Below are positions 11,523 to 42,700 of a stretch of 64,000 nucleotides of DNA, piece after piece. Each line of letters starts with the position of its first letter. Within the stretch, counting starts at the first letter, position 1. The stretch spans positions 248,001-312,000 of the forward strand of contig JAFCMP010000082.1 in NCBI GenBank assembly GCA_017506865.1, given 5' to 3'. The notes beneath the pieces were generated by a model. That model ran no database searches and had not been told where the DNA came from. It saw only the letters and a list, made by a program, of their open reading frames with translations. Both the position numbers and the translations under genes were made by a program. This stretch comes from Tribonema minus (Eukaryota > Sar > Xanthophyceae > Tribonematales > Tribonemataceae).

Positions 11523-14500
11523 TCACGGCCATGCCGCAGCAGGCGGGCTCGACCTGCCGGACAGGCGGCCGTTGGGCGCGGCGGCAGCAGCAGCAGCGAC
11601 GGCGGCGTTGGCGGCGGCGACGACGGCAGCGGTGCGCGGCGTCGGCGCGATGGGGCCCCCCGCCACCGCGGCGTGCGACGCGGAGACGACGGGCGAGCGG
11701 CCGCGCGCCATCTGCTCGCGCTCGAGCTTGGCAACGAGCAGCGCCATCATCTCCTGGTGCTCGAGCTGCATGGCGATGTCGAGGGGCGCGACGTCGTCGT
11801 CCTGCAGCGCGTCGAGCGCCGCGCCGTTCTGCGAGAGGAGCTCGAGGACGGCGAGCTGGCCGCCGCGCACCGCCTGCAAGAGCGCGATGGCAGCAGCAGC
11901 GGCAGCGGCGGCGGCAGCGGCGGCGTCAACGCGTGCGCACATTAGGGCCAGCAAGGCGTGGAAGAGGTACTTGGACGTACTTCAAGTACAAGAGGGCGCA
12001 CAAAAGTTGAAGCTGAAACCAAGTGGGTTTCTTTGCCATCATGCAATGTGCGCGACCTACATTTTGCTAGCCATGCTCTGCAGGGCATTCCATCATCGCA
12101 GAAGCCCAGCTACAGCTTGTTAGCCTCTCTCCTGTCGATGCATCAATCGAACATTCTCGATCCATGTCATACTCGTGTGCGGGTTGATAAGGCTTCGTCA
12201 CTTTGAGCATTCTTTCGTATGACTTTCTCCCATGATTTGTGCTCCATGATTCGAGAGCACGAAGACCACCCACATGCATGTACACATGTATGTACAAGCA
12301 TGGTGTACACGACATGTCATTTCGTGAGTGTACTGTCGCATAACTTTCGCGAGAACCAGAGCTGTGGGCGTTCGCTGTGGCCTTCACATCGCGTGTGCTT
12401 CGAGCTCCATGAGGCTGTCATTGTGAGCGTGGGCGTACATTCGTAGAACGTCAAGCTCCACGTGCGCATCGTTCGCGAAACCAAGAGTCACGGAAATCAC
12501 CGGTGTAGACCCCTTTCTGGGTCAGATTTCTTTTGCTTGCTGCCTGTGGGCATGTAAGGGCCGTTCTGCGCTGAGGCTTGTTGCGTGATTATGGATGAAA
12601 ACCACATGAATGTTGTGGCATATTGCAGATGGATTCACAGCGCCCTTTGGAGGGCCGTGAAGAAGAATTAAGTACATGAAAACGAAACCAGCCAATCAGA
12701 TCGTGCGCAGCTGGTGATGAGGGTCGCTGGCCATGCGTCACTCAGCACGCCCAGGCATGGCGAGAGTGGCTGTGCTGCGCCATGACTGTAGATACCGAGC
12801 TGCTGCTGCCTGCGTCACACGAGCGATTTGCTGAAGGGCCGTATCTGCGCTGGTCGCTACCGCTGCGAGTGACGTCGCGCTGGCCACGTATGTGAAAACT
12901 AGGGGCGCTGTACATAACGCGGTTTATAATTCAGGCCTGGATTCACGGCGCAAACTGGCTGTGCAGAACGGGTCTCATGAGGATGGGCCTGTGCGGCCTT
13001 GCCAGTCGATGCACCCATCGATGCTGACCTGAGTAGCGGCTGCTACTTGAAAAACAAGAATTAAAAAAAACAGGGGCTTTCATCGCTCGGCATTTATTCT
13101 GCTTGAACAGCCGACAATGGGGTGCGCATTTACTTCGCAGATGAATGCAGGAAATCATCACACTACACAGCACTACTTACACACAGGTGGCAACCTAGAG
13201 TGGAGCGTGACAAAGCTGCCTTCCTCGCATAGCATGCACGATGGCCAACGAAGGTGTGGTCGCCGAGCGCGCGCAAGAGCCGATGATTCTGCTGCTGCTG
13301 CTGCTGCTGCCGATTCTTGTGCTCCACGCGTGCCTTCTTGGCACTGCCAGGAGGGGTATCTGCGCTCGGTGCTGCACCGCGGCGCATGACTGGCGCCTTA
13401 GGGGCAGGGCTTCCCGATGAGTCAGCAACTGGCCCACCCTGGGCTTCACCGCTGTCCCTGGCCCTCTTAGCACGCTCATCGGCACCAGCCGTGGAGTGTG
13501 AGCTCGCATCATCGGCTCTTGCGCTTGCGCGCTCGGCGACCACACCTTCGTTGGCCATCGTGCATGCTATGCGAGGAAGGCAGCTTTGTCACGCTTCACT
13601 CTAGGTTGCCACCTGTGTGCAAGTAGTGCTGTGTAGTGTGATGAATTCCTGCATTTATCTGCGAAGTAAACGCGCACCCCCATTGTCGGCTGTTCAAGCA
13701 TAACAAATGCCGAGCGATGAAAGCCCCTGTTTCGCATTGACATTGCTGTTGTCACATGACTGTGACATGTACCCATTGCAGTGCTGTGCATCAGTTGCGA
13801 AGGGCACAGAGAGTCCTAGAGGCGCAACGCTGCCAGAATGCGCACGCTATTGGCGCAGCCGCAGACCCTGTCAGAGCGTACGAAAAGCCCCCTGGCGAAG
13901 CTGTGCAGCGCGCTCCGCTATCGGCTGCATGAACAGCAGCCAAAAGCATGGCTGCCAGACAAGCACGCCTGCCCTTCGCGCAAGCAAACACATCGCCGCA
14001 CACACACCATGGCCTGCATATACTGTGGCGGGCAGCGACAGAAGCGAGACACGCTGATATGGCCTGGGCGCATTCGTGAGCGCAGTCTGCTTGCGGCATA
14101 TCGAAGAACGGGCACTTACTGTTCACAGTCACGTGGCACTTTACGGAGGGTGCACTTGACATTGCAGTCCACTTGTGGATTTGTTCCAATTTCTGTTGCT
14201 TGAACTTAACCGATGACTTGCACAATGATGTCTTCGGCAATGCTGAGCTGGCACCGTCCACGTTTTCATGCTTACTGTTTGACATCACTCCATTACAGCA
14301 CGGGGCTGCTTGCCGCTGTTCAGCTGCCTCTGCTGCTTTTGCATTCAGCACTGGCATGGTGTGCGAGCGCATGCTCCATGTTCCAACGGCGTCGAAACGG
14401 TACGTAAGGTATCGATATCGCATCTTATGAGCGGCCGTGCTAATGCCTACGGTAGGTATGGGTGTCATGATACTATCATGCCTGGTGCGCGGGCGTGCTC

Positions 14501-39721: not shown

Positions 39722-42700
39722 GTGAGCACTGCTGCTCACTCGGTGGCACCGTTTTGCGCCAGTGCAGCGCGTGATCGAGCGCTGCGAGTTCGGCGCACGA
39801 CTGGATATTATTGCAGCACGCTTCCGATGCCTTCATATGTTGGGGCGGTCACCAATACATCATGAGTTGTTGTCATTACTTCAACTTCGATGTAGTATAC
39901 ATGTATGTCACTACATTTGAATTACTACGGGGCATGTCAGTGCTCAGTCTGGTGCATCAATGCTCAGGCAGCTTGGGGTGGGCGGGGGGGGGGCTCCGCG
40001 TTTGCGCCGCGCTGCCGCGAGCGCTCTCCCGTGCCTTGATCACAGCTGATCGCGCTTCAGTAGCAGGAGCTCAGCATCGCCTCAAATCCTCTGAGGTACT
40101 GTTGTCGTGTGTGGAAACTGCTCACACGTGGCATCAGGCGCGTGAGCGACATCACCAGCATCCTTTTACAAACTGCACTTCAACATCATCCGCTGAGCAC
40201 TGCCTAATCTGATGCATATACGTATTTGTGGTGTGTGTGTGGTGTGTGCGTGTGCCTGTGTACAAGCTGCACTTCAACATCATTCGCTGAGCACTGGCTT
40301 ACTCTGAATACGGCATGTATCTTCATGCGTGTGTGTGTTTGTGTGTGCCTGTGCGGCATTGCTCAGGCGGCGTGCGGCAACCGACGGCCATCGCCATACT
40401 GCCGGGCAATCCCCCAGCGCTCAGCCTGCCCGCGCGCGAGGCGCTGTACGGCGTCAAAGTGGAGTCCATCCTCATGTTCCAGCAGATCAACGTGAGCGCT
40501 CACTGCCGTGTGCTCGCCGCTGCTGCGCTGTCAAAGCGGAGCGCAAGTGCTCATGTACCTCCATGCGCACGCTGCTGCGTCGTCAGAGCGAAGCGCGTCC
40601 TCCAGCGGACTGACGTGAGCGCTTGCCGCCGTGCGCTTGCTGCCGCGCCGTCGCGCACTGTCCTGCATATGTAGCGTGCATCAGGAAACGCTGCTGCAGC
40701 GTCGAAGTGGAGCGTACACGCTCACCGCCATGCGCGTTGCTGCGTCGTCACAGCGGAGTCCGTCCTCCTCATGATGTTCCAGTAGAGCGACATGACCGCT
40801 GTGTTGTCGAGCGTTGTCCTGAACAGCGTGCAGACCACCGTGTGGCTCATGGGGACAGAGATCACCCTGTTCTGCCGCTGAGCAACTGCAACCACGCACC
40901 CCGAGCCTCAATTTGTTGCACCTCTACCCCCCCCCCCCCCCCCCTGCTCTCCCCCCCCCCCCCCCCCGCCTGCAGAACCTTCACTTTGAGTGGGTGGCCG
41001 ACGAGCTCAACAAGGGGCACCTGCCTCAGCTCGTGATTGAGTTCTTCAGCGACGGCGTCACCTGCGCGAAGATTGCTCAGGGCATGTACGACCCCCTGCT
41101 GATGGGGTTCATCAACGCGGCCAAGGCGGCCAACGACGTGCGCCCCTTCTATATCCGCCCCCTCCACGAGTTCAACGGTGAGGCTGGGCTTTGTTTAAGT
41201 AGTACTCCAAAGGCTTTTGAATCGAAGCAACTCACTTCAAGAAGTATATTTAACGCGGCCAAGCTGGCCAAGGACACGCGCCCCTTTTGGATTTTTCCCT
41301 CCACGAGTTCAACGGCGGGGCTGGTGCTGAGGGGTCTGTTGAAGAGTATTTCAAAGTCTGAAGTAGTACTTTGAAATTACTCACATTTGATTTTGCTTGA
41401 GGGGGGTTGGAAACCCTATAAATCAGGCGAGATATGCAGCTCTGATGCCCCACGTGCAGTGCGTGTGCTCGCAGCCCCGGATGTAATGGCAGCTGAAAGC
41501 AAGCGCCACCTGCGCTAAGCCAGGCCGGTTATGGTTGAGCCACCAGGAGGGCCTCGTCATCAGGATTAGGGTTACGGTTAGTCTGCCGTGGCCCCTACAC
41601 TTAGTTCTGTGCCCGCCTGTCCCTGTGAAATCACTGAAATCGGAGGAAGTAGAACCAGTAAGAGTTCTGTGCCCCGCCTGCCCCTGTAAACTCACTGAAA
41701 TCGGAGGAAGTAAAATCAGTAAGTCAGCAAGTAAAATCAGTAAGCTGACACTGCAACTGCGATGTGGGGAAATTGGCAAAGGGGGCTCCCCTCCCCCCCC
41801 CCCCCCTCCCCCCGCGACTGAGTCTGTGAGAAGCCTTTGAAGCCCCCCCCCCCCACACACACACACACAGTCGAGGCGGGCATTGTTGAGCAGTGCGTGT
41901 GATTCTGTGCGCGCGTCGTCAGGCGACTGGTACCCGTGGGGAATCTACGTGGCCAATAACGTCAACTCGGTGGCGGACTTCAAGGCCGCCTTCAGGCACG
42001 TCTCGCTCCTGTTCAAGGCCAACCTACCGCACGTCAAGGTTCAGCAGGGGTACAACAACCGCAACGCCTTCGACACCCCGACGGACATGGGGTCGTACTT
42101 CGTCGGCGCCGACGTCGTTGACATGGTGAGTGAGTGAGTGAGTGAGTGAGTGAGTGAGTGAGTGAGGGAGTGAGGGAGTGAGGGAGTGAGTGAAGGATAC
42201 AACCGCAATGCACTTTGTTGGCGCCGACGTTGTGGATGTGGTGAGTGAGTGAGTGCGTGAGTGAGTGAGTGAGTGAGTGAGTGAGTGAGTGAGTGAGTGA
42301 GTGAGTCAGAGGCGCAACCGGCAACGCTTTTGACGACACGACCGATATGGGGCTGTCCTATATAAGCGACAACGTTGTGAACATGGTGATGGAGTGAGTG
42401 AGTCAGTGAGTGAGTGAGTCGAATGGAGCACATTGACCGGCATATATATGTGCCTTTCGCAGTCGAAGGCAATCAGTCAAGTATGCTAAATGTATGCTGC
42501 GGCACAGTGAATAAGGTCATAGCTTGTGGTGACAGCTGCGAGCTCTTTACGGTATGTAGGTATGTGATGCGTTTTGGTGCGCGCCTTGGCGCTGAGTCAG
42601 AGGGTCTGAGTCTACTGGTACCGCCGTTGCCCTGGCACAGACGTATCATGACGCGTGCAGAGGCTCAAGTATCTGTATGTATTGGTATGAGCATGTGTGT

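What the first reader, a model, noticed from the sequence alone, without database searches (positions are those of the whole stretch)
14462..42420. Exon-edge stutter: partial exon plus splice site repeated into the neighbouring intron
In two unrelated genes on opposite strands (ACAP, minus; GH26, plus), many exons are bordered by one to five partial copies of their own edge including the splice site, often 100-150 bp apart and increasingly decayed. I counted donor-side arrays at ACAP exons ending 14554, 17572, 19456, 20348 and 30582 and at GH26 exons ending 40491, 41177 and 42125. Acceptor-side arrays are at ACAP exons starting 31793, 30735, 29517, 27444 and 23922 and at GH26 exon 37905. Intron growth by repeated tandem duplication across exon-intron junctions would explain it. 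It differs from whole-exon duplication and from dispersed introner elements because each array matches only its own exon. I know of no described system of this form.
Basis: partly seen in the sequence, partly recalled or inferred. Interest (0 to 1): 0.9.

Follow-up and report, generated by a model that had tools for sequence, protein, structure and literature searches.

The report
Duplicated exon edges inside algal introns
In this brown-algal relative, short stretches of DNA, mostly 100 to 200 letters apart and straddling the border of an exon, have been copied into the neighbouring intron, leaving decaying fossils of the exon edge that show one way in which introns can grow.

Summary
In ACAP and GH26, 12 of 54 junctions carry an exon-only copy of their own edge in their own intron; shuffled introns reach that score in 1 of 2160 trials. 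It is not peculiar to these genes: in 27 unselected 10-kb loci, 35 of 304 predicted junctions are hit, at 16 loci, among them an eIF3i and a PP4R3 gene.

That copies are confined to exon edges is not supported. Local duplications also occur in introns and intergenic DNA. Junctions are richer 3.5-fold (2.3-4.9), but 2.3-fold (1.2-4.0) after matching G+C, and the four loci read last gave 0 of 28. Simulated uniform duplication gives 0.5-1.2, so a modest, unexplained preference probably remains.

The copies look near-neutral: 23 of 97 have frame-changing gaps, and splice dinucleotides are not kept above expectation. Best reading: recurrent local tandem duplication, tolerated across a junction because the exon-proximal splice site still works. 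One boundary-crossing case is described in potato; a recurrent, multi-copy form looks like a new variant.

The parts
31917..31983 (-). copy of the head of ACAP exon B (exon 31793..31537) with its acceptor, 186-190 bp upstream of the true acceptor
   Evidence: 90% over 63 nt, copy splice site CCGCAG
30819..30891 (-). copy of the head of ACAP exon C (exon 30735..30582), 156 bp upstream of the true acceptor
   Evidence: 92% over 73 nt, splice site GCGCAG
29925..30460 (-). five copies of the tail of ACAP exon C, at 30400-30460, 30295-30366, 30170-30220, 30050-30100 and 29925-29976
   Evidence: 92, 94, 90, 94 and 85%; GTGAG donor directly after the copy at 30400-30460 and 30170-30220 only
29599..29863 (-). 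three copies of the head of ACAP exon D (29517..29365), at 29599-29634, 29711-29754 and 29832-29863
   Evidence: 94, 91 and 84%; acceptor CCGCAG kept in the first two
27521..27771 (-). copies of the head of ACAP exon F (27444..27334): 27521-27549 plus two shorter copies further upstream
   Evidence: 100% over 29 nt; two more with acceptor flank at shifts 190 and 271; 83-bp tandem repeat at 27621-27779
24093..24113 (-). copy of the head of ACAP exon H (23922..23875)
   Evidence: 95% over 21 nt, splice site GAGCAG, score 37 (marginal)
20178..20225 (-). copy of the tail of ACAP exon L (20479..20348), GC donor kept, 170 bp downstream
   Evidence: 94% over 48 nt; the only other match found in the genome
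19064..19339 (-). three copies of the tail of ACAP exon M (ends 19456), at 19305-19339, 19199-19233 and 19064-19089
   Evidence: 97, 97 and 96%; donors GTGAGC and GCGAGC in the first two, the third match stops 9 nt short of the junction
17441..17528 (-). copies of the tail of ACAP exon O (ends 17572), at 17503-17528 and 17441-17461
   Evidence: 100 and 95%; tandem repeats at 17350-17463 and 17441-17597; a further copy at shift 253
14472..14501 (-). weak copy of the tail of ACAP exon S (ends 14554) with its donor region
   Evidence: only: 90% over 30 columns when 30 nt of intron are added; not found exon-only
37728..37794 (+). copy of an inner part of GH26 exon g3 (exon 37905-38169), starting 11 nt inside the exon, without the acceptor
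   Evidence: 88% over 67 nt, 188 bp upstream
40734..40786 (+). copy of the tail of GH26 exon g6 (ends 40491)
   Evidence: 85% over 46 nt, score 37 (marginal)
41252..41314 (+). copy of the tail of GH26 exon g7 (ends 41177), followed by GCGGGG
   Evidence: 81% over 63 nt; shift 138
42212..42419 (+). two decayed copies of the tail of GH26 exon g8 (ends 42125), mixed with a (GTGA)n tract
   Evidence: exon-only score 35 and absent, so below my cut-off

Best explanation
The arrays are near-neutral relics of recurrent local tandem duplication with a unit of mostly 100-200 bp. Local duplication goes on throughout the non-coding DNA of this alga. When the unit straddles a splice junction, the exon-proximal copy of the splice site still works: the first donor, or the last acceptor. 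The other copy of the exon edge is therefore absorbed into the intron, which grows by one unit. Because the true exon is held constant by selection, its intron copies stay recognisable while spacer against spacer decays on both sides. Repeated events give multi-copy arrays. Shown: the copies, their spacing, direct orientation, own-exon specificity where tested, occurrence in many genes, largely unconstrained decay. Inferred: that the distal sites are not used, and that the copying step is DNA-level tandem duplication (for instance fill-in of staggered breaks or paired nicks, or slippage). A modest extra preference for junctions seems real but is unexplained.
For: 12 of 54 junctions against 1 of 2160 shuffles. 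Direct repeats outnumber inverted ones: 44 of 47 pairs closer than 5 kb in the window, and no inverted exon-edge match above score 27 at 52 junctions. First-copy shift is 100-200 bp in 39 of 47 junction arrays. The same test finds local repeats in intron interiors, 304 of 9291 sites, and intergenic DNA, 66 of 2702; near repeats are rare in exon interiors, 26 of 2061 20-mers. Copies lose their frame (23 of 97), and keep GT in 29 of 39 (4 more have GC) and AG in 17 of 21, at or slightly below what 5-7% divergence per site predicts. Exon-specific changes fall 1:2:12 on codon positions, copy-specific ones 70:59:103. The contrast between seed and spacer is about as large in non-coding controls. Arrays recur in Pfam-identified genes of random loci.
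Against: In 28 of 57 arrays the spacer is not detectably repeated (z 3 or less), and the 20348 copy matches only 48 exon nt plus 7 intron nt. Such copies need later deletion, fast spacer turnover, or a non-tandem copying step. Beyond the junction similarity falls somewhat faster than beyond control sites (for well-matched seeds about 0.6 against about 0.7 at 25-35 nt); the constrained exon side would give this, but so would copying of the edge alone. Uniform duplication in simulation does not give the junction excess, so this account is incomplete. Copy-specific changes are synonymous more often than chance (102 of 232, expected 24.7%, p = 2e-10). I read this as older exon states fossilised in copies, but past coding use of some copies would also give it. 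No RNA data and no relative's genome were available.
Confidence: 0.72

Rival explanations
1. Junction-targeted duplication: splice junctions are themselves hot spots (through transcription, nucleosome position over exons, or the compositional step at the junction), and this is the main way in which introns grow here.
For: Hit rate peaks at the junction (12.3% at offset 0, 2.1% at -60, 1.8% at +300; window genes included). Ratio over 27 random loci 3.5 (2.3-4.9), G+C-matched 2.3 (1.2-4.0), stratified by locus 4.0, against 0.5-1.2 in simulation. First shifts are tighter than for non-coding interior repeats: 39 of 47 against 39 of 77 within 100-200 bp, p = 0.0003.
Against: G+C matching removes much of the excess. 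The four loci read last gave 0 of 28. Hits are clumped by gene: 11 of 27 loci have none. Gene models at the random loci are ab initio.
Confidence: 0.45
2. Functional copies: the intron copies are used as alternative exons, alternative splice sites or decoys and are kept by selection.
For: Many copies keep consensus splice sites (one L017 exon: three of three donor copies followed by GTGAGT). Synonymous excess among copy-specific changes. Acceptor-side shifts are multiples of three in 11 of 21, not significant.
Against: Frame-changing gaps in 23 of 97 copies. Splice dinucleotides are not kept above the neutral expectation. Homologous ACAP proteins lack the repeats (by eye). Seed against spacer contrast is about the same in controls.
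Confidence: 0.12
3. Short templated insertions: exon-edge pieces are copied alone into the intron, without their spacer.
For: Spacers not detectably repeated in 28 of 57 arrays; the 20348 copy ends 7 nt past the donor; similarity falls somewhat faster past junctions than past control sites.
Against: Templated insertion should also give inverted copies and copies of exon interiors. No inverted exon-edge match above score 27 was seen at 52 window junctions, and 11 of 400 junction queries had a match that missed the junction, against 53 that included it. Spacers are repeated in the other 29 arrays. Loss of spacer similarity is as marked in non-coding controls.
Confidence: 0.2
4. Assembly artefact or dispersed introner-like element.
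For: None beyond the repeat pattern itself.
Against: Copies differ from their exons by 0-19%. The one array tested against the whole 158-Mb assembly matched only itself. For each of the 12 junctions none of 25 other introns scores as high. Arrays shown for other genes are built from those genes' own exons.
Confidence: 0.03

Closest known systems
Boundary-crossing tandem duplication in the potato RdRp gene (Ma, Lan and Niu 2016, PMC4974935; passages, and section 5)
   Same: A tandem duplication whose unit contains the end of an intron and the start of the next exon, hence a second copy of the acceptor.
   Different: One event that made a new intron. Here there are many events, at about a tenth of sampled junctions, on both donor and acceptor sides, often multi-copy, and the copy is apparently absorbed into the old intron.
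[quoted passage not shown]
   Same: Tandem duplication that doubles splice signals is the raw event.
   Different: There the new intron runs between the two AGGT copies. Here copies lie inside an existing intron, near their own junction, with the first copy mostly 100-200 bp away.
Introner elements (recalled)
   Same: Recurrent change of introns on a genome scale.
   Different: Introners share sequence between unrelated introns; the arrays tested match only their own exon.
Tandem exon duplication, mutually exclusive exons (recalled)
   Same: Exon sequence repeated next to itself.
   Different: In the window one edge with at most one splice site is copied; frame is often lost. At some random loci copies that look like whole exons occur.
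Break-repair tandem duplications in plants (paired nicks, patch-mediated repair; recalled, papers not obtained)
   Same: Short tandem duplications as a repair scar.
   Different: Not known to me as centred on splice junctions; the link is inference.

Membership tests
Boundary-crossing tandem genomic duplication | direct nearby copy of a unit that contains one splice junction | tested here: met
   12 of 54 window junctions have an exon-edge copy; with flank added the match spans the junction in most copies; no inverted match above 27
Boundary-crossing tandem genomic duplication | whole unit repeated, including the intron part | tested here: inconclusive
   spacer repeated (z > 3) in 29 of 57 arrays; non-coding controls show a like contrast
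Boundary-crossing tandem genomic duplication | creates a new spliced intron or exon | not testable with these tools
   no RNA data; homologous ACAP proteins show no extra segment (by eye)
AGGT-type intron gain by tandem duplication | intron bounded by the two copies, so intron length equals unit length | tested here: not met
   best copies at the 12 window junctions lie 43-295 nt from their own junction inside introns of 484-2452 nt
Introner elements | similar sequence in many unrelated introns | tested here: not met
   two matches in 158 Mb, both here; one array tested; 0 of 25 other introns as good, for each of the 12
Tandem exon duplication | whole exon with both splice sites copied (window arrays) | tested here: not met
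   copies cover 21-73 nt of exons of 48-265 nt (queries were capped at 80 nt, but the uncapped self-BLAST shows no whole-exon copy there)
Tandem exon duplication | whole exon with both splice sites copied (random loci) | tested here: inconclusive
   48 of 110 copies lie mostly in predicted exons and 23 predicted exons are copies of a neighbour and were removed from later counts; some may be real duplicated exons
Ordinary intronic tandem repeat (minisatellite) | no relation to exons | tested here: not met
   excess at junctions, ratio 3.5, G+C-matched 2.3 with interval 1.2-4.0; not repeated in the four loci read last

The most novel reading that the evidence does not exclude
In this lineage introns grow largely by duplication centred on splice junctions: roughly nucleosome-sized units across exon edges are copied again and again, so each intron carries a layered fossil record of its exon's earlier synonymous states. 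This would be a mechanism of intron expansion distinct from transposon insertion, introners and AGGT-type intron gain.
Probability: 0.3. Interest if true: 0.85.

Novelty: new variant of a known kind. Interest (0 to 1): 0.6.

Why it matters
How introns lengthen without transposons is hard to see, because the evidence decays on both sides. Here the exon is a fixed reference, so one can count, date and compare individual growth events. The arrays also give a natural experiment in splice-site choice: near-identical competing sites lie 100-200 bp apart. If confirmed genome-wide, the alga would be a model for intron growth by tandem duplication and for measuring its rate.

Tried and rejected
Selection on the copies: first suspected because the exon part looked better conserved than the spacer (0.151 against 0.290 differences between intron copies). 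Rejected when pseudo-junctions in non-coding DNA gave much the same contrast (seed 0.134, spacer 0.301 in intron interiors; 0.099 and 0.304 at junctions).

A sharp end of homology at the splice site: strong without gaps; with gapped extension and controls only a somewhat faster fall remains.

A recombination ratchet (collapse blocked at exons, growth allowed): simulated, gave ratios of 0.06-0.62 (0.77 without recombination), so it does not explain the excess as I modelled it.

Coding constraint on the copies: codon-position differences of 68:58:141 and the synonymous excess fit an exon that drifts at third positions between copying events; not proof.

Confirmation on the loci read last (L027-L030, gene finder frozen): 0 of 28 junctions, 17 of 1234 interior sites. 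This went against the junction preference and is included in the pooled ratio. Those four loci held few exons.

Dropped before counts: L023 (a 270-bp satellite over 3.5 kb), and from the controls; predicted exons that copy a neighbour (23); ACAP exon A (frame not followed); low-complexity queries (from then on; they stay in the denominator). Searches were run before copied exons were removed, so their 57 arrays of 371 junctions and 110 copies count some arrays twice.

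Full report
Setting. The window is part of a 158-Mb assembly in 554 contigs, a eukaryote by its spliced genes. A protein search with the ACAP BAR region found stramenopile algae: Chrysoparadoxa australica at 84% identity over a third of the query, Ectocarpus and Scytosiphon at 58-63% (Chrysoparadoxa lies in the PX clade). 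I therefore take the host to be a relative of the brown algae; the species is not known.

Gene models. I read 19 ACAP exons (minus strand, 33440 down to 14554) and 9 GH26 exons (plus strand, 36852-42952) from sequence, splice signals and open frame. The ACAP frame is open from exon B on, and carries BAR_3, PH and ArfGap domains. Homologues of its BAR part run through the exon junctions without the repeated segments (by eye). GH26 is supported by endoglucanase H (1.8e-13), though the Pfam match is just below its cut-off.

The observation. Exon-only queries against the own intron give 21 copies at 12 of 54 junctions with score 36 or more, against 1 of 2160 shuffled introns. In a separate count of 52 junctions the same 12 also score above each of 25 other introns, and no reverse-complement match exceeded 27. 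With flank added, copies run 14-73 nt into the exon and up to 30 nt, the limit of the query, into the intron. A 401-bp query around 20348 has two matches in the genome, itself and its intron copy. The window reached me because of the pattern, so its rate is biased upwards.

Not only here. I fetched 24 further 10-kb loci at fixed contig positions, chosen without looking. I trained a simple splice-aware gene finder on the window genes and then on its own predictions (24 of 28 manual exons exact, the four misses being GH26 exons 1-4). Local direct repeats were present in 18 of the first 20 loci. Clear exon-edge arrays sit in conserved genes identified by Pfam: eIF3i at L015 (three acceptor-side and two donor-side copies of one exon), a DIM1-like rRNA dimethylase (RrnaAD) at L026, PP4R3 at L017 (three donor copies, each followed by GTGAGT), and a CBS-domain gene at L010. 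A fifth gene shown to Pfam, from L018, had no match.

How special are junctions? Coverage by near repeats in 24 loci: donor junctions 15 of 111, acceptor junctions 14 of 122, intron interior 203 of 2649, exon interior 26 of 2061, intergenic 326 of 2367; by that measure intergenic DNA equals junctions. With one identical seed test at each site, window included, junctions gave 53 of 400, intron interiors 277 of 9955, intergenic sites 66 of 2702. In 23 random loci, after removing predicted exons that copy a neighbour: 35 of 276 against 287 of 8057, ratio 3.6 (bootstrap over loci 2.3-5.2). Four more loci, read last with the gene finder frozen, gave 0 of 28 against 17 of 1234. Pooled over 27 loci: 35 of 304 against 304 of 9291, ratio 3.5 (2.3-4.9), stratified by locus 4.0, and 2.3 (1.2-4.0) when interior sites are matched for G+C; the junction rate exceeds the interior rate at 16 loci and is lower at 6. 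Hit rate peaks at the junction and falls off on both sides (window genes included). In simulation, uniform duplication with a protected exon predicts 0.5-1.2. So duplication is general in non-coding DNA and probably, not certainly, more frequent or better retained at junctions.

Unit and order. The first copy lies 100-200 bp from the junction in 39 of 47 junction arrays, against 39 of 77 for non-coding interior repeats (Fisher p = 0.0003). 22 of 47 arrays have two or more copies. The nearest copy is more similar than the second in 14, less in 6, tied in 2 (p = 0.12).

Are the copies used? Of 97 copies, 23 have frame-changing gaps. Splice dinucleotides are kept in 29 GT plus 4 GC of 39 donors and 17 of 21 acceptors, at or slightly below the neutral expectation at 5-7% divergence per site. 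Differences from the exon fall 68:58:141 on codon positions for 55 copies outside predicted exons. In 22 multi-copy arrays, changes peculiar to the exon fall 1:2:12 and changes peculiar to a copy 70:59:103; 102 of 232 of the latter are synonymous, against 24.7% expected, p = 2e-10. My reading: the exon drifts at third positions, and copies made earlier keep the older state, so part of the apparent copy changes are exon history. Past coding use of some copies is not excluded.

Is it tandem? For: direct orientation, spacers repeated in 29 of 57 arrays. Against a simple form: in the other 28 the spacer is not detectable, at 20348 the match ends 7 nt past the donor, and similarity falls somewhat faster past junctions than past control sites. 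Non-coding control repeats show much the same loss of similarity outside the seed, so fast spacer turnover together with the constrained exon is a sufficient account, but short templated copying is not excluded.

Mechanism proposed. A unit of 100-200 bp is duplicated side by side, by repair of staggered breaks or nicks, or by slippage (inference). If it lies inside an exon it is mostly removed by selection (inference from the low exon-interior rate); if it straddles a junction it is neutral, because splicing keeps to the exon-proximal site (inference; no RNA). The intron grows and the copy decays. A recombination ratchet did not reproduce the junction excess, so that excess has no tested cause.

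Known work. Tandem genomic duplication is a recognised route of intron gain (PMC3443670, passages). One boundary-crossing duplication with intron gain is described in potato, and the same paper notes a second, 83-bp tandem duplication within the gene's first intron (PMC4974935, passages, section 5). Five paper searches returned listings; the others failed or met the cap. That a recurrent multi-copy form is undescribed is therefore a weak claim.

Noticed in passing
non-coding DNA of the window and loci L003-L026 without L023: Telomere-like tracts are scattered through non-coding DNA: TAACCCTA (both strands) occurs 62 times in 226 kb, about 42 times the dinucleotide expectation, and 0 times in predicted exons. 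Possible break-repair scars (inference).
   Followed up: partly
non-coding DNA of the window and loci L003-L026 without L023: The motif ACTTCAA / TTGAAGT is about 10 times over-represented in non-coding DNA (259 in 226 kb) and about twice as dense near local repeats. Function unknown.
   Followed up: partly
window 13068-13287 and 13508-13732: Inverted repeat with arms of about 220 bp at 95% identity, perhaps a small DNA transposon or a foldback element.
   Followed up: no
window 61459-61646: Young 93-bp tandem duplication, 99% identical.
   Followed up: no
L023:1-3744: A 270-bp satellite array at about 95% identity.
   Followed up: no
window 36852-39721: The GH26 gene begins with two similar cysteine-rich modules and Thr/Pro/Ala-rich linkers (translation, by eye), as in secreted wall enzymes; the module was not identified.
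   Followed up: no
window 20347: ACAP exon L uses a GC donor, and its intron copy keeps the GC donor.
   Followed up: partly
ACAP exons C and D, acceptor copies at 30819-30891 and 29599-29754: Copies lie 156, 117 and 237 bp upstream, all multiples of three, and by eye the frame reads open into the exon; in the whole sample 11 of 21 acceptor-side shifts are multiples of three, not significant.
   Followed up: partly
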